From a virus, in IMG/VR virus record IMGVR_UViG_3300023109_000073, positions 1-32,799 of that record: a stretch of 32,799 bases of DNA; one strand, written 5' to 3'. The notes under the pieces are model-generated. The model worked only from the letters and a program-made list of their open reading frames with translations, did no database searches and had not been told where the DNA came from. Numbering within the stretch: position 1 is the stretch's first letter; every line of letters begins with the position of its first letter. Position numbers and translations under genes: made by a program. Below are positions 2,203 through 19,611 of this stretch, piece by piece.

Positions 2203-5055
2203 TTATGCAAAGTTACCTGTTGCGATCTCTCCTGTATTTAATACAGTTACCCTAGATACTAGAATCTCAAGACCTTTAACTGGTTCAACGAATGTATCAA
2301 GAATACCCATGTTGTTATCGATCACCTCAGTTGTGTTGTTTGAAGTGTCCATAAGGTTCTTGTAGTCGTATACACCACCATCTTTCTTAACTGATTCCAT
2401 AAAGTTATCAGCTAAAGTTTTGATTTCTAATCTAGTTTGAGCTGTATTAAACTCGAACAGATAGTTTTTAAGAATTTCAGCTAAACCATCTTCAATATAG
2501 ATAAGAACTTCTCTTACGTGTGCTGAAGATAAGGCTGATTGAATTCCTTGCTGTGCAGTTTTATTACCTTTGATTGTTAAACCAACGCCTCTTTCAAATA
2601 CGATTGGGTTGTAACCAAATGGTTCAAGTACATCTCTATCATTCTTATCGAATGAGAATTCTAAAGATTGAACACCTGTTCCACCTACAACACCTCTTCT
2701 TGGGCCTGCGATGATTGACCATGGTAATGCATCTAAATATTTGTCAATATAGTTATTTGATACGTAAGCTGCTGGTGGAATAACTTTAGTTCTACCGTTC
2801 TCAATTACGTTAAGACCAGGACCGTAGTAGAATGCATAGTTTGCACCTTCATTGATCGATGGTAATGTGTAAAGAGCTGTTGGGTTTAACTCTAAGTTAC
2901 CTCCTGTTGCAACGTTATTCACGTCAAATGCACCAGTGATAGCATTTAAGAATGATGGGTTTGTAGAAGCTTTTAATTCTTTCACCATTGGTGCGTTAAG
3001 AATTGCAGAAGCGTTCTGTCTTTCTTTACATAAGAATGATAATTCTTCTTTGTTTAAGATTCCACCGTTCTCTAATGAACCGAATGTATCAACTACATAT
3101 CTAAATGTAATATTATCTTTATCTACTAAAGCGTTACCTAAACCAGTACCTGGCTTAATTGCTGATAGTAATTCTGCAATACTTTTTGCAGTTTGAGTTG
3201 CTCCTTCTAATGGGAATGTCTTATAGAATCCACCTGCATCCTCATATCTCTTAAGAGAGTATGATGGTCTTGAAGAAACTGCTCTATGTGTTTCAAATCT
3301 GTAGTAAGTAGTTCCGTTAACAACAGTTTTAACGATCTTTTTAATTCTAGATAGTTTACCACCGTCACCTGGTACATACATACCTACTTTAATATCTGAA
3401 TTCCAAGTTGCATCATTTGAACCTGATAATGTGAAGATACCTGCACCGTTATCAGTAAATGTCCATCCTTCTGATAATGTTGGGAACATTTCTGCTCTTG
3501 CATTTGGAGTTAACGTCCATACATCAAATGATGTATTAATACCCGCAAAGAAAGCTGTTAATGAATTACCAACACCGCCGTATTGAGTACTAAATGAAAG
3601 TCCACCTGCACATGAGATTGTTAATGCACCATCTTCTACAGAAACATTTGAGATAGCAACATACTCACCAGCGTTAACTGATTCTAAGAAGTTACCAACT
3701 ACAATTGATTCGTAAGATGTTGGTGTTGCATCAACTACAATATTACCATCTTCATTAACAATAAAGTTAGCGTTAGATGCCCATGGAGCTGGAGTACCTG
3801 GATTAAATTTTTCATAAGATTTTGAAATAGCACCAGAAGCAACGATTGTTACTTGACCTTCACCATTTGCACCCGAACCAGTATTAGTGATACTTTCGAT
3901 CTTAACATATTCACCTCCAACATAAGCTTCTAAGTATTTAGAATCTGTAATACCATGTAAAGAGGATAAGTTAGCTGCACTTAAAGCAGGATCGTTACCT
4001 TGGATGGTTAATGTTGAACCAGCAACTGATACGATACCAGCTTGTGCTGTTAAATCTACGATAGATTCTGCAGCTACTTGCTTCACTTTATGAGAAAGAA
4101 TCTCATAATCTTGGTAGATGTCAAAGTTGTTACCTACTAGATCAATTTGTGGAAGTGCATCTTCTTGTACTGCACAGAATAAACCAGTTCTTCTAGCCTC
4201 CATATTAATTAGAGTCTCGATATACATTTGGTTACCTTCTGCATCAATAAATTCAGGAATTAATGATACACCATTATATTGTGCTAACAGAGTTACTTCT
4301 CTTAAACCAGCAAACTTAGCGAATTCTGATTTTAATAACCCGTCTTGAGTAAAGTAGTTTCCGTAGTTTGGATCGTTATTTAATTCAGCAGCGTCAAACT
4401 TGCCTTTAAATACAAATACATCTACTAGGTAATCTGATACGTACTCATCTGCATCAATACCTTCTGGAATATTTGATTCACCATACCATTCTCTTGCTGT
4501 TAATTCAAAACCTCTAACATCTCCAGCTTGTCTAATGATAACTGTGATTGGATCTTGTTTGATATTAACAAATGAGATTGCGTGGTTTGTGTCTTCTGCA
4601 GCAGCAGATAAAAGTTTTTCATCTGAAGGATTCCAAAACTTGTCTGTATCAAATACAGCATTAAATTGCTTTGAAGCAGCATTTGATGCTTGTAATGAAT
4701 TAGCTGATAAACCTTCTTGTGATGAGTTAGTTGCTGGAGAGAAAATTGATACTCTATCAGCAGCATCTGCACCAGTTAGGTTTAATGCTAGAATAGGACC
4801 TCTAGATAAAGCCTCGATAGCTGATCTGTGGAAGAACATTCCTTTCTTTTCTAACGACTTGTCTACACCACCGAAAACTTGCTTGAATTGTTCTACATCT
4901 TCTACTAATACTGGAGTATTGTAAGGACCCTTTTTAGATCTACCTACAACTAGTCTAATAGTTTCTGCAGGGATGTTAACAGTCTGTGATTTGTCAAACT
5001 CTAAGCGATATACGCCCGAGCTTTTGAACTGTAATAATTGAGGACTTAATGCCAT
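2203..5055 (-). CDS. gp18: contractile tail sheath protein gp18, enlarged
   Basis: A 950-aa protein that surrounds the tail tube and contracts on infection. T4 gp18 has 659 aa. The N-terminus (GVYRLEFDKSQ, RLVVGRSKKGPYNTPVLVED, FFHRSAIEALSRGPILALNL) and the C-terminal block (AQTRLEIKTLADNFMESV, GGVYDYKNLMD, ILDTFVEPVKGLEILVSRV) are typical of T4-type sheath proteins. The C-terminal half also has the conserved GRTKVIPPAAYVSNNY and INEGANYAFYYGPGLNV segments. The extra length lies roughly between residues 330 and 600, where beta-rich modules recur, each with a 'G.yl....gEYV.I..I' pattern, followed by Gly/Ser-rich strands. These probably decorate the outside of the sheath. It is preceded by a late promoter, and gp19 follows. 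Confidence 0.93.
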   Translation of the reverse strand: MALSPQLLQFKSSGVYRLEFDKSQTVNIPAETIRLVVGRSKKGPYNTPVLVEDVEQFKQVFGGVDKSLEKKGMFFHRSAIEALSRGPILALNLTGADAADRVSIFSPATNSSQEGLSANSLQASNAASKQFNAVFDTDKFWNPSDEKLLSAAAEDTNHAISFVNIKQDPITVIIRQAGDVRGFELTAREWYGESNIPEGIDADEYVSDYLVDVFVFKGKFDAAELNNDPNYGNYFTQDGLLKSEFAKFAGLREVTLLAQYNGVSLIPEFIDAEGNQMYIETLINMEARRTGLFCAVQEDALPQIDLVGNNFDIYQDYEILSHKVKQVAAESIVDLTAQAGIVSVAGSTLTIQGNDPALSAANLSSLHGITDSKYLEAYVGGEYVKIESITNTGSGANGEGQVTIVASGAISKSYEKFNPGTPAPWASNANFIVNEDGNIVVDATPTSYESIVVGNFLESVNAGEYVAISNVSVEDGALTISCAGGLSFSTQYGGVGNSLTAFFAGINTSFDVWTLTPNARAEMFPTLSEGWTFTDNGAGIFTLSGSNDATWNSDIKVGMYVPGDGGKLSRIKKIVKTVVNGTTYYRFETHRAVSSRPSYSLKRYEDAGGFYKTFPLEGATQTAKSIAELLSAIKPGTGLGNALVDKDNITFRYVVDTFGSLENGGILNKEELSFLCKERQNASAILNAPMVKELKASTNPSFLNAITGAFDVNNVATGGNLELNPTALYTLPSINEGANYAFYYGPGLNVIENGRTKVIPPAAYVSNNYIDKYLDALPWSIIAGPRRGVVGGTGVQSLEFSFDKNDRDVLEPFGYNPIVFERGVGLTIKGNKTAQQGIQSALSSAHVREVLIYIEDGLAEILKNYLFEFNTAQTRLEIKTLADNFMESVKKDGGVYDYKNLMDTSNNTTEVIDNNMGILDTFVEPVKGLEILVSRVTVLNTGEIATGNFA

Positions 5056-5112: not shown

Positions 5113-6945
5113 TTATTTCAATAGGTCATAAATATCATATTGTAAATCACCCTGCTGATCACTATCTTTAAATAGTATCGCTTCCATCTCGTCATGGAGT
5201 TCAGGGTCTATGAAATCTAAGATCTCTTCCACAAAGTCTGCATAGTCTGTTGTATTAAAAAATTCGGTTGCAGTGATGCAAGTCATTATCACGTCATCAT
5301 TGCCCATTTGGGCTCCATAACTTCCATTTGGTAAAGTACCAAAAAGACTAGCTTCCGTCACTGTAACTTCATCAGTTAAATCTAATCTATTTATCTTATA
5401 CAATTTTGCGAAATTCTGGCAGAAGATAGCTTTATTGTCAGATTTTAGTTTGATTCCTGGTTTTAATGCCCTTCCATCATGTCGGTGTTTAAATTTAACT
5501 ACCATCTCATCATCAAAGTCATTTCTTTGTGGAAATATACTTCTTAGATATTGGAATAGAACTGTACCATAAGTATTATACTCCACGATCATCTTTACGT
5601 TTTCTGGATAAAATACATCTACTGCTAAAGTATATAGTACTTTTGCAAAATCTTCAATCACATGTTCGTTTGATCTAAATCTAGCTACTTGTGTAAATTT
5701 AAAAAAGTCATACATCGCACCAGGATTAATAACGTTCTTAATTTCTTCTGTGTTCATTGGATTAACCTGAAAGACATTAATTACCGATGAGTCACCACCA
5801 TTGCCTTCTGCAATATCTACAGAGAATACCCAAAAGTTTTCTGGGTCTTTACATGTATCAATATCAAAGTCTGGATCCCATTCTAAGAAACCGTTTGTAT
5901 CAATACTAATATAATCAAATTGATCAAATTCATGATAAACATAAGGCTTCATTCTCTTTCTCATCTTCTTCATATCGACTGGGTCTAATAGGAGGTTAGA
6001 TGAGCTGACGAACTCATTTCCATATTGTTTATTAAATGCTTCAATTGAACCTAAGTTCGCTAATTCTCTTTCATACCATGCCTCGTCTCTATCAGGGTGT
6101 TGCCACCAATCAATTCTTGTCGCTAGATATTCATTATCACCTCGATCTGCCGCAGCATAGATTTGATAGAACTTATTAAATCCGTTTGGCGTAGATGTAA
6201 TTGTTATTCTTGAGACTTTCGATGAGGATAATGTAGGATATACATTCTCGTAAAAAGAATCAGCAATCGATGGATGGACGTGGGCAAACTCATCTAGGTA
6301 TAAGTTATGGATTGTAAAACCAATACCGGATTTTGCTGTGGTTGACTGTCCTATTAGTCGACAACCATTATCACATCTTACATTCATGACATCATATTTG
6401 ATAATACCTGGTTTCATAAAGAACGGTAAGTTCTCGATTACTGTTTTGGCTTTATCAATAATTTCTTTTGTTGAATCAGATTTGTTGGCAAGTAGCAGAG
6501 TATTCTTATCCATATTAAAGGTAACATACCATGCATTAAATATAGATGCGGTTACGGTTTTACCCATTTGTCGAGCAGCAAGAACAATATTAAATCTATC
6601 ATTCTGGAAATTCCTCAACATTTCTTTTTGATAATCTCTCAGCTTTACTTGTTGAATACCTTCATCGGTCATTACTACTGCATACTTCTCTGCAAAGTAG
6701 ACGATGTCTTTGGCACATCTGGCTAACTCGGTAATTTCCTCATCAGTATATTCAAATACAATATTACCCTTCTTTAGAAATTGTCTACCCTCGTAGAATG
6801 GTAACTTAATCTTAGGACGATAACCCTGATCCATAGCAACCAACAAGTCGTTGATTTGCCTAGTCGACCAGACAATTCTATCAGCAGAGGTTGCGTCACC
6901 TTCTGCTTTGGGAATCCATTTATTATCTCCTACTCCGTCTGACAT
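5113..6945 (-). CDS. gp17: terminase large subunit gp17 (packaging ATPase-nuclease)
   Basis: 610 aa, the same length as T4 gp17. It powers DNA translocation into the prohead through the portal and cuts concatemeric DNA. N-terminal ATPase: an adenine-binding region near KLRDYQKEM (101-109), Walker A ARQMGKT (124-130), Walker B LYLDEFAHV (215-223, catalytic E219) and coupling motif ITSTPNG (249-255). C-terminal RNase H-like nuclease: acidic residues at VDIAEG (D377), VEYN (E455) and GNDDVIM (D550/D551), so the nuclease appears intact. The ATG follows the gp16 stop directly (TAAATG), indicating coupling to the small subunit. Gene order 16-17-18-19 matches T4. Confidence 0.97.
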   Translation of the reverse strand: MSDGVGDNKWIPKAEGDATSADRIVWSTRQINDLLVAMDQGYRPKIKLPFYEGRQFLKKGNIVFEYTDEEITELARCAKDIVYFAEKYAVVMTDEGIQQVKLRDYQKEMLRNFQNDRFNIVLAARQMGKTVTASIFNAWYVTFNMDKNTLLLANKSDSTKEIIDKAKTVIENLPFFMKPGIIKYDVMNVRCDNGCRLIGQSTTAKSGIGFTIHNLYLDEFAHVHPSIADSFYENVYPTLSSSKVSRITITSTPNGFNKFYQIYAAADRGDNEYLATRIDWWQHPDRDEAWYERELANLGSIEAFNKQYGNEFVSSSNLLLDPVDMKKMRKRMKPYVYHEFDQFDYISIDTNGFLEWDPDFDIDTCKDPENFWVFSVDIAEGNGGDSSVINVFQVNPMNTEEIKNVINPGAMYDFFKFTQVARFRSNEHVIEDFAKVLYTLAVDVFYPENVKMIVEYNTYGTVLFQYLRSIFPQRNDFDDEMVVKFKHRHDGRALKPGIKLKSDNKAIFCQNFAKLYKINRLDLTDEVTVTEASLFGTLPNGSYGAQMGNDDVIMTCITATEFFNTTDYADFVEEILDFIDPELHDEMEAILFKDSDQQGDLQYDIYDLLK

Positions 6946-7662: not shown

Positions 7663-7827
7663 TTAACCAAGTGGTTCAATGCCGTTAGGTGGCGTAAGGT
7701 GATGTTTAGACTCTGGTTTCCAGTCTTTTAAATAATATTCTCTTAACTTTTTTCCTAGTTCGGAATCATTTGGCGTGTCTTCTACAAGTTTCATAACTTG
7801 TTTAAATCTATAATATGTGCCGTCCAT
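7663..7827 (-). CDS. 54-aa hypothetical protein between gp14 and gp16
   Basis: Short ORF starting MDGTYYRFKQVMKLVEDTPN and ending PPNGIEPLG. The ATG lies 6 nt after the stop of the gp14-like gene, and it fills an otherwise 231-bp gap. The N-terminal 35 residues can form amphipathic helices (FKQVMKLVEDT, ELGKKLREYYLKDW); the rest is His/Pro-rich. It shares the gp14 late promoter, so it is probably expressed late. No family recognised. Supported by the tight spacing, sensible composition and ATG start; no independent evidence. Confidence 0.6.
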   Translation of the reverse strand: MDGTYYRFKQVMKLVEDTPNDSELGKKLREYYLKDWKPESKHHLTPPNGIEPLG

Positions 7828-7833
7828 AATTTA

Positions 7834-9798
7834 TTATCGGTTTTGGTTATACTTTCTTAATTGAATAGAAGGAACTGCATTGTCAATAATCTCTGCTAGG
7901 TGACTATCTCTTACAATATATTGCTGTAACATATTTGTATGCTGATCCTTTCCTATTGTTTGGTTAAATAATCTAATATTCGTAACAGCTAAATTACCAG
8001 GCATTAGCGAATATTGTTTTTGAGTTACCCATCCTTGCGCAGCTGTAATTTCAAAATTGTGATCCATCACATTTTCTAATGTATCTGAAACTGGCATAGA
8101 TGTTAATTTATTACTATTTGGATTTAGCTTGTATACATTGGCTGAAGTATTTAAGTACTTATTATTTAGATTATACACTAAGCCGTACCAATTACCATTA
8201 ACTGGTGGTGTAGCAAATCCATATTCTAGAATTAAATCATTAATATATGCTTTAATAAAAGTTTGATTTACTGTTATTTTTATACCTTTATCTCCTTGCC
8301 ATCCATCAAATATAGTTTGCTCTTGGGTAGCAGAAGTCATATTAGGTTTGAACCATGTGGTTATTGCTAAATTATTAGTATTCGGTAGTTGTGAAAATTT
8401 CTTGTATAATAAACATTCAATACCTCGATCTTTTACAGATTCTAAATCATAATGGTTTTTTGCAACAATCGTCCACTTGTTTCTAAGTTCTTTATCTGAT
8501 ATAACTAAACCGCTATGAATTCTATCTCTAACTCCATCTCCTACCTCAGAGAATACAGTTTGATATTGTGTAGATTTAGTAGTTTTTTCAAATTCATCTT
8601 TTTGCTCAGCACCAAATACTTCTTCAACACCAGTATAAAGATCATCTAATTGTTGTTCCATTGCTTGACCCTCAGCAGTATCTGTATCTATAATACTTGA
8701 CGTACGTTCTTCATATTTAGATAACATTAATCTCCAGTAAGTCATGGTTTGATTAAACTCATCAGCAAAACTTACAGAAGATACTTCATACATTCTATTC
8801 ATAATTGGAATGTACATATAGTCTCTAGGCCTTGGATGAATACCTGGTCCAAATGCTGCTTCCATTTGACCTTTTGTAATATGGATTTCAAAATCCTCGA
8901 AGCCCATTCCAAAAATATCATATTGGAATTCTCTAGTAGGCATCGCATTATCAGGAACCATAATCTTTAGGTTCCCTTGTTCTTTTACATTATATAGAGA
9001 ATATTCTTTTAAGATTACATCTCTAGATCTTTGATCAGGTTCAACTCTAAAATACTGAGTATCGTGTCCCCACATATTAGCAGATAATTCACTAATCTCT
9101 GAATATATCGCAGTAGGTTTACTTAAATTATATGGATCGTAAATAGGGTCTGAACAATCAATTACTACATTTGTACAACCTGCTAGATATGGGTCATCAC
9201 AATCTGTACAAAGTTGTGGACAAGATTGTATTGTACCGTCTGCTGTTTCTAATTCGAAAGTAACTGAAAGTAAACTTAAACTATGTAAAGATGAAAGTCT
9301 ATGAACTTCTGTTTTTACATCAATCCAAAGTGGTTTTGTTGGATCAAAAGTCATACCTAGTAAATCTCTTGGGCCAATACTATTATTCAAAGGCCTTAAC
9401 TCCGACATCTGTCCACCATCACTAGAAACGCTATCTTGTGACCATCTGAAATCATAGTTAAAATAATTATCTGCGTCTGTATATTCATAAAATTTTACAG
9501 CACTTGCAGAAAAACCAGCAGATTCTACAGTAGTAATAACATTTCCGTCAACACTATTAACCTGAAATATTTGAGACCCTGCAATAAACAAATTACCGGG
9601 ACTTAAATTAAAATTAGTACCAGTACCAATAATTGTCGTACTACCTTGAGTTATTGCTAAAGTACCTACTGAATTAGGTGAGTTTACACCCACTAAAATA
9701 TTCCAAGAAATAATACGATTAACATTCGTATATGGTTCCTGTAATTTAGCGAAGAAGTAATCCCCGATAGCATTCGCTGTAAAATTTGTTACTGCCAT
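7834..9798 (-). CDS. gp14: gp14-like neck protein with added N-terminal, Cys-rich and lectin-like domains
   Basis: A 654-aa virion protein (T4 gp14 is 256 aa). Residues about 230-380 match the gp14 layout: MWGHDTQYFRVEPDQ (gp14: 'm.G....Y.pr'), RDVILKEYSLYNVKEQGNLK, FGMGFEDFEIHITKGQMEAA, PRPRDYMYIPIMNRMYEV and FNQTMTYWRLMLSKYEE. In T4, gp14 with gp13 and gp15 connects head and tail. The N-terminal ~200 residues hold a beta-rich segment (GTLAITQGSTTIIGTGTNF) and a Cys cluster (CPQLCTDCDDPYLAGC). The C-terminal ~220 residues (ITTWFKPNMTS, FDGWQGDKGIKITVNQTFIK, NGNWYGLVYNLNNKYLN) resemble a concanavalin/LamG-like fold. It has its own late promoter and lies upstream of gp16-gp17. The gp14 core is likely; the added domains are inferred. 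Confidence 0.7.
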   Translation of the reverse strand: MAVTNFTANAIGDYFFAKLQEPYTNVNRIISWNILVGVNSPNSVGTLAITQGSTTIIGTGTNFNLSPGNLFIAGSQIFQVNSVDGNVITTVESAGFSASAVKFYEYTDADNYFNYDFRWSQDSVSSDGGQMSELRPLNNSIGPRDLLGMTFDPTKPLWIDVKTEVHRLSSLHSLSLLSVTFELETADGTIQSCPQLCTDCDDPYLAGCTNVVIDCSDPIYDPYNLSKPTAIYSEISELSANMWGHDTQYFRVEPDQRSRDVILKEYSLYNVKEQGNLKIMVPDNAMPTREFQYDIFGMGFEDFEIHITKGQMEAAFGPGIHPRPRDYMYIPIMNRMYEVSSVSFADEFNQTMTYWRLMLSKYEERTSSIIDTDTAEGQAMEQQLDDLYTGVEEVFGAEQKDEFEKTTKSTQYQTVFSEVGDGVRDRIHSGLVISDKELRNKWTIVAKNHYDLESVKDRGIECLLYKKFSQLPNTNNLAITTWFKPNMTSATQEQTIFDGWQGDKGIKITVNQTFIKAYINDLILEYGFATPPVNGNWYGLVYNLNNKYLNTSANVYKLNPNSNKLTSMPVSDTLENVMDHNFEITAAQGWVTQKQYSLMPGNLAVTNIRLFNQTIGKDQHTNMLQQYIVRDSHLAEIIDNAVPSIQLRKYNQNR

Positions 9799-9828: not shown

Positions 9829-9837
9829 TTATATATC
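9829..9837 (-). promoter_or_regulatory. late promoter GATATATAA embedded in the 222-aa gene stop
   Basis: The nonamer is exactly GAT ATA TAA, the last two codons (Asp-Ile) and stop of the upstream gene. The leader to the gp14-like ATG is 30 nt and contains a small dyad, AGAGT-TAAG-ACTCT (9806-9819). Confidence 0.75.
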
Positions 9838-10497
9838 TGACTCCCAATCGGTGATTAAAAGCATTTCAGGATTATCTTGTTCGTGGTGTTCTAATGCGTG
9901 AATAAATGCATTAGTTACACCCAAAGTTTCAACTGTATTATTCTCAGCTTGAAATAAATCTAAAGACTCTAAAAAGTCTTTTACTCTAAATATACTAAAC
10001 TTATCTCCTTCTTTTAAAAGACCAGCTCTTACTAATATAGAATTAGATAAATGTAATTCGTGCATATTAAATAGATCAAACATACGAATACTCCCTCGTA
10101 GTGTTTTAATATCGTATTTAATAGTCTTAGCTTGATCTACTGTTACAATTCTATTATAGCTAGAATTTTTATTTAGATTAACTTTAATATATTTTAGGTT
10201 TGGCATAGTATCAAAAATCTGCCAAATAAAATAAATTGATGTAGCCTCTTTATGTATGTTTATACCACTAACAGATTTAAATCTATTAACATCTTTCTTA
10301 AAACCATATTCTAAATATTGAAGCATACGGTCTTTACTAACTAATACTACGTCATCGCTAGTTCTTTTTGCCTCGCTATCTCTATTTAATATACCCCATA
10401 ATTTAAGATCTATTGAGTTATATTTGTAAAGAGTAATGTCTATGATCTCTGTAAAATAGTCTTCAACTTTTTGCATAAACTTGTATCTGTTCTTCAA
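9829..10497 (-). CDS. hypothetical 222-aa protein of the gp44 operon
   Basis: Unrecognised soluble protein with mixed helix/strand composition, basic N-terminus (MKNRYKFMQKVEDYF) and acidic C-terminus (LLITDWESDI). Segments such as VVLVSKDRMLQYLEYGFKKD, YFIWQIFDTMPNLKYIKVNL and IRMFDLFNMHELHLSNSILV look like an ordinary globular fold. It overlaps the preceding 143-aa gene by 35 bp in another frame; using the next Met (MQKVED) would still leave 14 bp of overlap. It is the last gene of the gp44-RNase H unit and has no late promoter of its own, suggesting early or middle expression with replication functions. Its stop codon is part of the gp14 promoter. It does not look like gp13, RegA or DNA polymerase. 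Confidence 0.8.
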   Translation of the reverse strand: MKNRYKFMQKVEDYFTEIIDITLYKYNSIDLKLWGILNRDSEAKRTSDDVVLVSKDRMLQYLEYGFKKDVNRFKSVSGINIHKEATSIYFIWQIFDTMPNLKYIKVNLNKNSSYNRIVTVDQAKTIKYDIKTLRGSIRMFDLFNMHELHLSNSILVRAGLLKEGDKFSIFRVKDFLESLDLFQAENNTVETLGVTNAFIHALEHHEQDNPEMLLITDWESDI

Positions 10498-10894
10498 TTT
10501 TTTTCAAATCAGCGAAAAGATGGTCTTTAGCAAAAAGTTTTAATTCATTAAATTCTCTGCTTCCAATCTCGTTCCTGTCCATATATATGGTAACAGCCCT
10601 TTCACTTGGAATATATTTATCTGCTTTATTTTTAGCAGCCTTTTTGGTTTTAGTATAGAACCAACCTGGAACAGATTTGAATCGAGAAGCAACAGTTGCC
10701 CAGCATTCTACTACATTACCACCATTAATACCATTAATATTAAATAGTTGAGCATTACTAGGATATTTAATAGACATAAAACGATTAATCATAAAATGAT
10801 GCCGCTTCTTTGTACTATTCTTTAATGTATTATATTGGGCTCTTTTCGTGAACATTATCTTCACGAAGTCAAATAGTTTAGTTTCGTCTAACAT
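10463..10894 (-). CDS. possible clamp-loader small subunit (gp62-like)
   Basis: A 143-aa protein (T4 gp62 is 187 aa). The segment KKRHHFMINRFMSIKYPSNA followed by LFNINGINGGNVVECWATVA and SRFKSVPGWFYTKTKK resembles the core of gp62-like proteins in distant T4 relatives ('yMiNr.lS...d....n', then a small-aliphatic helix and 'krf.kwikk'). The rest is basic and helical and ends KKIEEQIQVYAKS. It is in the same operon as gp44, the large clamp-loader subunit, which needs a gp62 partner; in T4 the order is 44-62. I rate the match as suggestive only. A RegA or unrelated function cannot be excluded. It starts 29 bp after the 52-aa gene. Confidence 0.45.
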   Translation of the reverse strand: MLDETKLFDFVKIMFTKRAQYNTLKNSTKKRHHFMINRFMSIKYPSNAQLFNINGINGGNVVECWATVASRFKSVPGWFYTKTKKAAKNKADKYIPSERAVTIYMDRNEIGSREFNELKLFAKDHLFADLKKIEEQIQVYAKS

Positions 10895-17457: not shown

Positions 17458-18987
17458 TTACTTTTTAAATCTTTTCTTTAAGCTTTCAGCGTAGCTAGAC
17501 ACATCGTAAAGTGGCTCGTTCTTCTTCTCAGCAACTGCTGATTCGTTAACGGGAGCTAACTTTTCTAGGTCAACTTTTACCTCTCTTAGATCTCTAGTTT
17601 CCCAGAAGTTTCTAACTTGATACTCAGTTTTTAGAGTATGGTATTTTGATTGAGCTTTGATTTGATTTTGTTTAGACTCAGAAAGAGCTTCGAACTTTTC
17701 TTTGTACTCTGCAGGAGCTGCAGTGATAAAGAATGGTTCAGCTGTTTTAGCTTCTACAACTGCTTCAGCAGATTCAACGATTGCGTTGATTTCGCCCTCA
17801 GTCATAAAACCTCTTTTAGCAACTCTTTGTCTAACTTCAGTTTTAGCATCTTCGTTTAGAGCGTTATATTTATCTTGAGTTGTGCTAGATACAACTTTAA
17901 AGAATGATGGATTTTCATTTTCTTTAACTTGTGCAGCCTCAACTAGAGCGTCTAACTTAGATGAAATTTCTTTTTTGTAAGTATCTAAAGCAGATTCTTC
18001 AACTTCTTCAGTTTCTTCAACTTCTTCAGTCTCTTCAACCTCTTCAGTTTCTTCAACTTCTTCAGTCTCTTCAACTTCTTCAGTTTCTTCAACTTCTTCA
18101 GATTCTTCAACTTCTTCAGTTTCTTCAACTTCTTCAGTCTCTTCAACTTCTTCAGCTTCTTCTTCAGTAACTTCGTCTTCAACTACTTCTTCAGCACCTT
18201 CGCCAGCTTCGTCTTCTTCTTCAACTTCTTCAGTCTCTTCAACTTCACCTTCTTCGTGATGTGCTTCTTCAGTTTCTTCAACTTCTTCAGTTTCTTCAAC
18301 TTCCTCAGTTTCTTCAACTTCCTCAGTTTCTTCAACTTCTTCAGTTTCTTCAACTTCTTCGCCTTCTTCTTCGACTACTTCTTCAGCACCTTCACCAGCT
18401 TCGTCTTCTTCAGCAACTTCTTTAGTTTCTTCAACTTCAGTAGCTTCTGTTTCTTCAACTTCTTCTTCAGCAACCTCTTCAGTTTCTTCAACTTCTTCTT
18501 CAGTTACTAAGTTTTCGTTAATTTGAGTAGCAATATATTCTGCATACTCAGAAACGTTCTGTAGATTTTCTTTCAAATACTCTACATAAGATAATAAGTT
18601 CTCAGAAGTTTCAGTACCTTCATTATATTGTTCAGCCAAATAGTTAGAAAAATCTTTAACTTTGCCAACAGCTTCAGCTAAATGCTCAGAGTATTGAATA
18701 CCTTGATCTAATTTTTCTGCTACATTTTCTGTATATGAAATACCTTGATCGGCTTTTTCAGCTACATGCTCTGTATATTGGATTGACTCGTCTAATTTGC
18801 CAGCTAAATACTCTACGTATTCTGAGAGAGTATTAACGCGCTCGACGATGTGGTCGTTATGAGACTTTACGCTCTCTAACGTGTTATCTTCGCTATTCGC
18901 TCCGATAGACTCTTTAATGCCTTTAATTTCGTTAGCTAAGTACTCAGAATACTTGTGGAAATCTTCAGCCTTTACAAATTCTGCCAT
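17458..18987 (-). other. possible nested scaffold ORF from an internal start (Met209)
   Basis: An in-frame ATG at 18987 falls exactly at the boundary between protease linker and scaffold-like helices (MAEFVKAEDFHKYSEY). It is preceded by AAATAATAATAAAAAC, the same A/T-rich leader type used before the true genes here, and would give a 509-aa scaffold protein without the protease. This parallels lambda C/Nu3, where the scaffold is translated from within the protease gene. Evidence is positional only. Confidence 0.4.
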
Positions 18988-19611
18988 GTTTTTATTATTA
19001 TTTGTTTCTATATTGGTTTCTGTAATTTCTTGTGCTACTTCAGGAGCTTCTACGCGACCGCCGTTCATTTCGTAGATCCATAGGCCTGAGTTATCATCAA
19101 AGCCATAAGATTCATTTACTCTCTTTAACTCAGCATTAGCGAATCCAGGATCTGCTACTAAGTCATAAGTAAATAATTGCTTGATTTTAACTTTACCGTT
19201 AGATTCAACGGCACCAGCTGCTCTAGAAGAGATTTGTAAAGGTACTCCAGCATCAACAAGAGCTTTAGCTTGTCTACCAGCATCAGTATCTAAAAGTCTA
19301 ATTTTACCTTTAACTTGTTTGTTATCTTTGTCGTAATAAAGTTCTTCAATAATGTGTGAAACATTCTTAAGAGAAACATCAAACTGTTGTGGGTGATCTA
19401 ATTCACCTAATAGTTTAGAAGATTTAATCTTATCTTGTAATTGCTGAATTTGAGGAACATACTCATCTTCAGTGTAGATACGATTATTTTTATTCTTGGA
19501 GTCAATTTCTCCGAAGATACCTTCTAGAATGTACTCTTTGTTTTCACCTTCAGCTACTTTTAACTGAGATGAAGACATTTCTACGATCAATAAGTCGTTT
19601 TTGTTTGCCAT
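17458..19611 (-). CDS. gp21: prohead core protease (gp21-like) fused to an acidic scaffold-like domain
   Basis: 717 aa. Residues 1 to about 190 form a T4 gp21-type prohead protease (212 aa in T4): EYILEGIFGEIDSKNKNNR, LLGELDHPQQ with catalytic His73, and LQISSRAAGAVE with the catalytic Ser at 128/129. After a short Asn/Glu linker comes a helical region (209-360) with a repeating 'Y.E..AeK.DqgI' pattern of about 14 residues, then an acidic repeat block (about 369-539, EEVEET units), and a C-terminal region with two related ~57-residue copies. In T4 the scaffold is a separate gene, 22, just after 21; here no other gp22 candidate lies between protease and capsid, so the fusion probably supplies the scaffold. 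A nested start at Met209 is plausible. Own late promoter. Confidence 0.9.
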   Translation of the reverse strand: MANKNDLLIVEMSSSQLKVAEGENKEYILEGIFGEIDSKNKNNRIYTEDEYVPQIQQLQDKIKSSKLLGELDHPQQFDVSLKNVSHIIEELYYDKDNKQVKGKIRLLDTDAGRQAKALVDAGVPLQISSRAAGAVESNGKVKIKQLFTYDLVADPGFANAELKRVNESYGFDDNSGLWIYEMNGGRVEAPEVAQEITETNIETNNNKNMAEFVKAEDFHKYSEYLANEIKGIKESIGANSEDNTLESVKSHNDHIVERVNTLSEYVEYLAGKLDESIQYTEHVAEKADQGISYTENVAEKLDQGIQYSEHLAEAVGKVKDFSNYLAEQYNEGTETSENLLSYVEYLKENLQNVSEYAEYIATQINENLVTEEEVEETEEVAEEEVEETEATEVEETKEVAEEDEAGEGAEEVVEEEGEEVEETEEVEETEEVEETEEVEETEEVEETEEAHHEEGEVEETEEVEEEDEAGEGAEEVVEDEVTEEEAEEVEETEEVEETEEVEESEEVEETEEVEETEEVEETEEVEETEEVEETEEVEESALDTYKKEISSKLDALVEAAQVKENENPSFFKVVSSTTQDKYNALNEDAKTEVRQRVAKRGFMTEGEINAIVESAEAVVEAKTAEPFFITAAPAEYKEKFEALSESKQNQIKAQSKYHTLKTEYQVRNFWETRDLREVKVDLEKLAPVNESAVAEKKNEPLYDVSSYAESLKKRFKK
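17995..18505 (-). repeat. 18-bp coding repeat array (EEVEET units)
   Basis: Tandem, slightly varied copies of an 18-bp unit (minus strand GAAGAAGTTGAAGAAACT) encode Glu-Glu-Val-Glu-Glu-Thr repeats, residues about 369-539 of the protease-scaffold protein. The block is interrupted twice by a second repeated cassette with EEDEAGEGAEEVVE, and once by AHHEEGE, which suggests a larger internal duplication. Such arrays are prone to copy-number change and to assembly error. Confidence 0.85.

What the first reader, a model, noticed from the sequence alone, without database searches (positions are those of the whole stretch)
7834..9798. Neck protein gp14 fused to Cys-rich and lectin-like domains
Only the middle ~150 residues correspond to gp14. 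The N-terminal part includes CPQLCTDCDDPYLAGC, a possible metal site or disulfide-rich knot, unusual for a T4-type neck protein. The C-terminal ~220 residues have the strand pattern of LamG/concanavalin folds, which often bind glycans. The neck may therefore carry a built-in decoration that binds host or environmental sugars, a job done by separate fibritin whiskers in T4.
Basis: partly seen in the sequence, partly recalled or inferred. Interest (0 to 1): 0.6.

Follow-up and report, generated by a model that had tools for sequence, protein, structure and literature searches.

The report
Phage neck protein with lectin-like domain
In a large family of giant aquatic phages, the ring protein that plugs the head and joins it to the tail (gp14) carries an extra domain at each end, the last with a sugar-binding-protein fold; the fusion is real and widespread, but nothing yet shows that it binds sugar, and its conservation looks more like a built-in structural collar.

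Summary
The fusion is confirmed. The 654-aa ORF at 7834-9798 (-) has a gp14 / head-closure Hc2 core (residues ~222-410). Its family profile finds only T4 gp14 in the PDB (E 1e-5), and the AlphaFold model's best PDB match is T4 gp14. Residues ~424-640 form a concanavalin/LamG jelly-roll (pLDDT ~90; Foldseek: laminin LG, pentraxins, legume lectins; weak Laminin_G_3 matches, one relative above Pfam's cut-off). Residues 1-189 are a separate beta domain without a clear relative. Five cysteines (193, 197, 200, 208, 215) are invariant in 36 of 36 close relatives but absent from PAU and PTm1.

This is not a one-off. More than 100 loci have the architecture, including Sphingomonas PAU gp88, Tenacibaculum PTm1, probably Lak phages, and 460-735 kb megaphages. 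It is the only full-length gp14 in the 16 phage records searched.

T4 fibritin binds gp13, not gp14. The lectin-fold domain is under purifying selection, co-inherited with the gp14 core, and ends in the protein's most conserved stretch. I favour an integral six-fold structural collar at the head-tail junction. Novelty: new variant of a known kind.

The parts
7834..9798 (-). 654-aa gp14-type neck (head closure Hc2) protein with N- and C-terminal extensions
   Evidence: ORF; phrog_679; AF2 model md37d26162ec7; more than 100 homologous loci
9232..9798 (-). Residues 1-189: N-terminal all-beta domain; no significant relative in the PDB as a whole
   Evidence: AF2 of this part pLDDT 82, pTM 0.74; best Foldseek E 3e-3, unconvincing
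9487..9672 (-). Residues 43-104: insert (GTL..GS..I.GTGTNF..PG..F..G...F.V) predicted as a small beta-barrel; absent from LR756500; fastest-evolving of the segments compared in clade A
   Evidence: alignment gap; p-distance ratio 2.14 to gp14; 94-column local match to KP34p57 depolymerase, prob 1.00 but E 6e-3, and to F1-ATPase beta-barrels. The assignment of these short matches to the insert is inferred.
9133..9231 (-). Residues 190-222: Cys cluster C193, C197, C200, C208, C215, candidate Zn site (or disulfide knot)
   Evidence: 36/36 invariant in clade A, absent in PAU/PTm1, partly replaced in megaphages; dN/dS 0.086
8677..9132 (-). Residues 223-374: gp14 core (N-terminal helix 226-243 plus beta-barrel to ~361)
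   Evidence: A7 profile finds T4 gp14 9lu4/9mkb E 1e-5 as the only PDB hits; Foldseek 9lu5_M E 9.8e-6, prob 1.00, TM(target) 0.58
8530..8676 (-). Residues 375-423: long helix (375-406) and flexible linker, in the position of the T4 gp14 C-terminal arm
   Evidence: AF2 secondary structure; T4 anatomy from PMC12270204
7879..8529 (-). Residues 424-640: concanavalin A-like / LamG jelly-roll domain
   Evidence: pLDDT ~90; Foldseek to laminin LG, pentraxin and legume lectin domains, E 1e-5 to 7e-4; PF13385 in 10/25 domain members, 31.0 bits in pT24 against cut-off 27.6
7837..7923 (-). Residues 626-654: nearly invariant C-terminal segment (QYIVRDxxLxxIIDNAxPSIQLRxYNQNR); last 10 residues disordered in the model; probable docking peptide (inferred)
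   Evidence: entropy ~0.3 bits, dN/dS 0.065, lowest of the protein; pLDDT < 50 for 645-654

Best explanation
This is the gp14 (head-closure / stopper, Hc2) protein of a T4-type jumbo phage, enlarged by an N-terminal beta domain with a Cys-rich knot and a C-terminal LamG-type jelly-roll. Shown by computation: gp14 identity, domain order, fold of the C-terminal domain, its presence in nearly all relatives examined and its co-inheritance with the core. Inferred: as in T4, six copies form a ring below gp13 that gates the DNA and then receives the tail (gp15). The N-terminal domain precedes the helix that contacts gp13 in T4, so it should lie on the head/collar side. The jelly-roll follows the C-terminal arm that contacts gp15 in T4, so it should lie on the outside of the neck, at the top of the tail. 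The nearly invariant C-terminal tail would dock on a neighbouring virion protein. The result would be a built-in six-lobed collar that braces the head-tail junction of an unusually large virion, with its variable loops facing outward. Any sugar binding would be secondary.
For: gp14: the family profile finds only T4 gp14 convincingly in the PDB (E 7e-4; core alone, E 1e-5); Foldseek best hit 9lu5_M; phrog_679 in 15/27 core members; PF11649 and PF13385 on one protein in PTm1. Order gp14 - small-terminase-like gene - TerL - sheath as in T4. LamG fold. Structural role: the C-terminal domain is single-copy and inside the gp14 ORF in 15/16 phage records searched, which hold no other full-length gp14. 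Distances of the domain track those of the gp14 core (r 0.84 and 0.87). Purifying selection, dN/dS 0.155, and 0.065 in the last 29 residues. Tandem N-terminal units in megaphages show that the ends tolerate growth.
Against: No structure of any such neck exists in what I could search, and hexamer and placement are carried over from T4. The jelly-roll evolves 1.75 times faster than the gp14 core, and its loops have dN/dS ~0.3, which also fits contact with a variable environment. Full-length pTM is only 0.48, so domain placement in the model means nothing. Distance correlation also reflects shared ancestry and is not a proof against swapping.
Confidence: 0.6

Rival explanations
1. One reading: the LamG domains are working lectins, six per neck, that bind host capsule or environmental polysaccharide and hold the phage near its prey.
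For: Fold class shared with sugar-binding proteins. Variable loops 484-503, 524-533, 544-553 and 564-593. Several relatives infect Bacteroidota, whose phylum is rich in polysaccharide-degrading bacteria (own knowledge). Lactococcus phage neck passage proteins carry carbohydrate-binding domains (PMC10684548).
Against: No domain swapping seen and no extra copies elsewhere in the genome. The highest conservation lies at the C-terminal tail rather than in a pocket. The reported neck-fibre carbohydrate-binding module of A-1(L) did not bind its host. Binding residues could not be assessed.
Confidence: 0.22
2. The extensions are an attachment platform: the jelly-roll or the N-terminal domain anchors separate neck or long tail fibres, doing on gp14 what gp13 domain III does for fibritin in T4.
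For: Jelly-roll and small beta-barrel domains often serve as docking modules in phage tails (own knowledge); the insert gave a local match to a depolymerase segment; the C-terminal tail is strongly conserved. PTm1 has a sub-threshold Fibritin_C-like stretch in a 1317-aa ORF.
Against: No gene recognisable as a fibre was seen next to this gene in the window. The fibritin search was weak everywhere.
Confidence: 0.17

Closest known systems
T4 gp14 neck protein (PDB 9lu4-9lu7, 9mkb; Pfam PF11649; PHROG 679 'head closure Hc2')
   Same: N-terminal helix, beta-barrel and C-terminal arm order; sequence profile and fold match; gene order towards terminase and sheath
   Different: T4 gp14 is 256 aa with no N-terminal beta domain, no Cys knot and no jelly-roll
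Neck proteins of Tenacibaculum phage PTm1 (619 aa), Sphingomonas PAU gp88 (566 aa), Chryseobacterium MA9V-2 (584 aa), pT24, Flavobacterium MaF61; Lak phages (516 aa)
   Same: Same gp14 core. C-terminal domain confirmed by profile in PAU, PTm1, pT24 and (weakly) MaF61; the Lak proteins show a similar C-terminal region in alignment only
   Different: No Cys cluster in PTm1 and PAU; shorter N-terminal domain; Lak lacks it; profile A6 gave no C-terminal match in MA9V-2
Laminin_G_3 / concanavalin A-like lectins (PF13385), pentraxins, laminin LG domains
   Same: Jelly-roll fold; profile matches in part of the family
   Different: 8-16% identity; sugar or Ca2+ site not shown
T4 fibritin (wac) whiskers
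   Same: Both would decorate the neck
   Different: Fibritin is a separate trimer bound to gp13 domain III (PMC12270204); no homology to this protein found

Membership tests
gp14 / head closure Hc2 (phrog_679, PF11649) | Sequence profile match to the family | tested here: met
   phrog_679 E 2.4e-4 for the window core, best member 2.4e-10; T4 gp14 E 1e-5 from profile A7. PF11649 itself did not match the window protein, only PTm1 and one other member, best score below cut-off
gp14 / head closure Hc2 (phrog_679, PF11649) | Helix plus beta-barrel fold of gp14 | tested here: met
   Foldseek 9lu5_M prob 1.00, TM(target) 0.58
gp14 / head closure Hc2 (phrog_679, PF11649) | Single copy beside terminase and sheath genes in a T4-type genome | tested here: met
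gp14 / head closure Hc2 (phrog_679, PF11649) | Hexameric ring between gp13 and gp15 | not testable with these tools
   needs cryo-EM or in vitro assembly; the immediate upstream gene (9829-10497) did not match gp13
Concanavalin A-like / LamG domain | Jelly-roll fold | tested here: met
   pLDDT ~90; laminin LG, pentraxin and legume lectin hits
Concanavalin A-like / LamG domain | Pfam Laminin_G_3 score over the curated cut-off | tested here: inconclusive
   window 16.3 bits against 27.6; pT24 relative 31.0 bits, above it
Concanavalin A-like / LamG domain | Carbohydrate or Ca2+ binding site | not tested
   model coordinates not available for site comparison; no assay
Fibritin (wac) | Coiled-coil trimer with foldon (Fibritin_C) | tested here: not met
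   no match of this ORF to Fibritin_C in the Pfam scan

The most novel reading that the evidence does not exclude
A whole lineage of Bacteroidota-infecting jumbo and megaphages has turned the head-closure ring into a permanent six-lectin collar with a metal-bound knot, so that virion assembly and adhesion to environmental or host polysaccharide are encoded in one obligatory protein.
Probability: 0.2. Interest if true: 0.65.

Novelty: new variant of a known kind. Interest (0 to 1): 0.4.

Why it matters
gp14 is a central gate of the T4-type head-tail junction and is small in T4. A stable, lineage-wide fusion of this gate with a lectin-fold domain shows that the neck ring can be built up into a larger protein, and it gives a concrete, testable target (PAU or PTm1 virions, both cultured) for how giant myoviruses reinforce or decorate their necks. 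It also annotates a group of proteins mostly listed as hypothetical.

Tried and rejected
phmmer of the single protein against the PDB: no hit; only profiles worked. PF11649 against the window: no match. Pfam on the single full-length protein: nothing. Search with the 15-member alignment for loci: no conserved stretch, solved with subgroup alignments. Cyanophage 'Gp14 neck protein' with LamG (H8ZN75) as precedent: rejected; it is a 2409-aa apparently misannotated structural protein, and the phage has a separate 308-aa gene annotated head closure Hc2. Clostridial neurotoxin binding-domain hits reflect the shared jelly-roll fold only and say nothing about toxicity. N-terminal domain: no significant structural relative. 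Upstream gene 9829-10497 as gp13: no support. Fibritin in relatives: one sub-threshold match; the controls rang in none, so absence is not shown. A literature search for LamG with phage neck gave a single paper, a Vibrio siphophage isolation, judged unrelated from its abstract.

Full report
Observation. The ORF at 7834-9798 on the minus strand is 654 aa. PHROGs gave only a weak head-closure match for the single protein (phrog_679, E 0.0018, residues 241-385), Pfam nothing, and phmmer against the PDB nothing. The window is a 32.8 kb virus record with a T4-type gene set, nearly all read on the minus strand: UvsX, DnaB, SbcCD, late sigma, gp4, gp2, portal, protease, gp23 capsid, clamp loader, exonuclease, this gene, a small-terminase-like gene (E 0.03), TerL, sheath, tube.

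Relatives. tblastn against phages found 31 records: megaphages of 462-735 kb, Sphingomonas PAU gp88, Tenacibaculum PTm1 ('neck protein') and pT24, Chryseobacterium MA9V, Flavobacterium MaF61 and Prevotella Lak phages. IMG/VR scans gave 128 locus entries in which the ORF was recovered, some of them from contigs already seen. The proteins are mostly 516-930 aa, against 256 aa for T4 gp14.

gp14 core. A profile of 15 diverse members finds only T4 gp14 convincingly in the PDB (E 7e-4). A profile of the core alone gives E 1e-5, with gp14 the only hits. phrog_679 matches 15 of 27 cores. The AlphaFold2 model (71 sequences, mean pLDDT 75.7, pTM 0.48) has T4 gp14 as its best PDB match (9lu5_M, E 9.8e-6, TM by target 0.58). 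The order helix 226-243, beta-barrel, then a long C-terminal helix 375-406 mirrors T4: helix 38-54, barrel to 177, C-terminal arm 178-256, which engages gp15 (PMC12270204).

C-terminal domain. Residues 424-640 are predicted with pLDDT ~90. Foldseek matches laminin LG, pentraxin and legume lectin domains at E 1e-5 to 7e-4 with 8-16% identity. Laminin_G_3 (PF13385) matches 10 of 25 family domains, is above Pfam's cut-off in pT24 (31.0 bits), and sits on the same protein as PF11649 in PTm1. In the window it is the only such match (residues 470-546, below cut-off). A sequence profile of this domain finds nothing significant in the PDB, so the assignment rests on fold prediction plus Pfam.

N-terminal part. 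Residues 1-189 form a confident all-beta domain (pLDDT 82, pTM 0.74) without a significant PDB relative. A segment around 43-104 is an insert absent from LR756500 and is probably the source of short matches to small beta-barrels, among them a phage depolymerase (94 columns, prob 1.00, E 6e-3). In the megaphages the conserved 'YRxSxDxxxWSxW' unit occurs twice, which suggests tandem growth.

Cysteines. C193, C197, C200, C208 and C215 are invariant in 36/36 clade members, and no other Cys occurs in residues 1-404. The background is 0.48%. PAU and PTm1 lack them; the megaphages have a different cluster, often RECC. A zinc knot is the likelier reading because the protein folds in the cytoplasm (inference); a disulfide knot in the released virion cannot be excluded. 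The model gives the loop pLDDT below 50.

Function. Six points bear on it. (1) In 16 phage records each has one full-length gp14 (two records also have short partial matches), and in 15 of 16 the C-terminal domain was found, always in that same ORF and nowhere else. (2) Pairwise distances of the C-terminal domain follow those of the gp14 core (r 0.84 in clade A, 0.87 in clade B), although shared ancestry contributes to this. (3) The domain evolves 1.75 times faster than the core in clade A, with dN/dS 0.155, and ~0.3 in its loops: relaxed, not diversifying. (4) The last 29 residues are the most constrained of the protein (dN/dS 0.065), although residues 645-654 are disordered in the monomer model, as expected of a docking peptide. 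(5) T4 fibritin binds gp13, not gp14. (6) A neck-fibre carbohydrate-binding module in A-1(L) did not bind the host (PMC10966104), whereas Lactococcus neck passage proteins can carry carbohydrate-binding domains (PMC10684548). I therefore prefer an integral structural collar, with sugar binding possible but unproven.

Novelty. The parts are known and members are in databases; two are annotated 'head closure knob' and several 'neck protein'. I found no description of the gp14-LamG fusion in the open papers searched, a limited library. The lineage appears related to Bacteroidota jumbo phages such as Lak; the recently described 'moraphages' (PMC12619734) may be kin, which was not tested.

Noticed in passing
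window ~7668-7824 (-): A small ORF of about 50 aa (MDGTYYRFKQVMKLVEDTPNDSELGKKLREYYLKDWKP...) directly follows the gp14-fusion gene and precedes the small-terminase-like gene.
   Followed up: no
L148:10957-18186 (NC_019443 80956-88185): Cyanophage metaG-MbCM1 'gp14 neck protein' (2409 aa) appears misannotated; the same phage has a separate 308-aa head closure Hc2 next to gp13 and gp15 genes.
   Followed up: partly
W02 (AP019524.1) 6193-6315: Tenacibaculum PTm1 has a sub-threshold Fibritin_C-like stretch (E 2.2e-4, 19.2 bits, cut-off 21) inside a 1317-aa ORF, a possible foldon-ended fibre.
   Followed up: no
window 9829-10497 and 10463-10894 (-): Two genes immediately upstream of the gp14 fusion are conserved in most close relatives (80 and 76 loci); the 222-aa one has no recognisable family, the 143-aa one matches only phrog_35599 of unknown function.
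   Followed up: partly
window 17458-19611 (-): The prohead protease gene is 717 aa with the phrog_207 match spread over residues 4-501, longer than the 519-position profile, suggesting insertions or a fusion.
   Followed up: no
window 2203-5055 (-): The tail sheath is 950 aa; the typical sheath profile (phrog_23) has its best match only in residues 735-941, so much of the rest may be lineage-specific.
   Followed up: no
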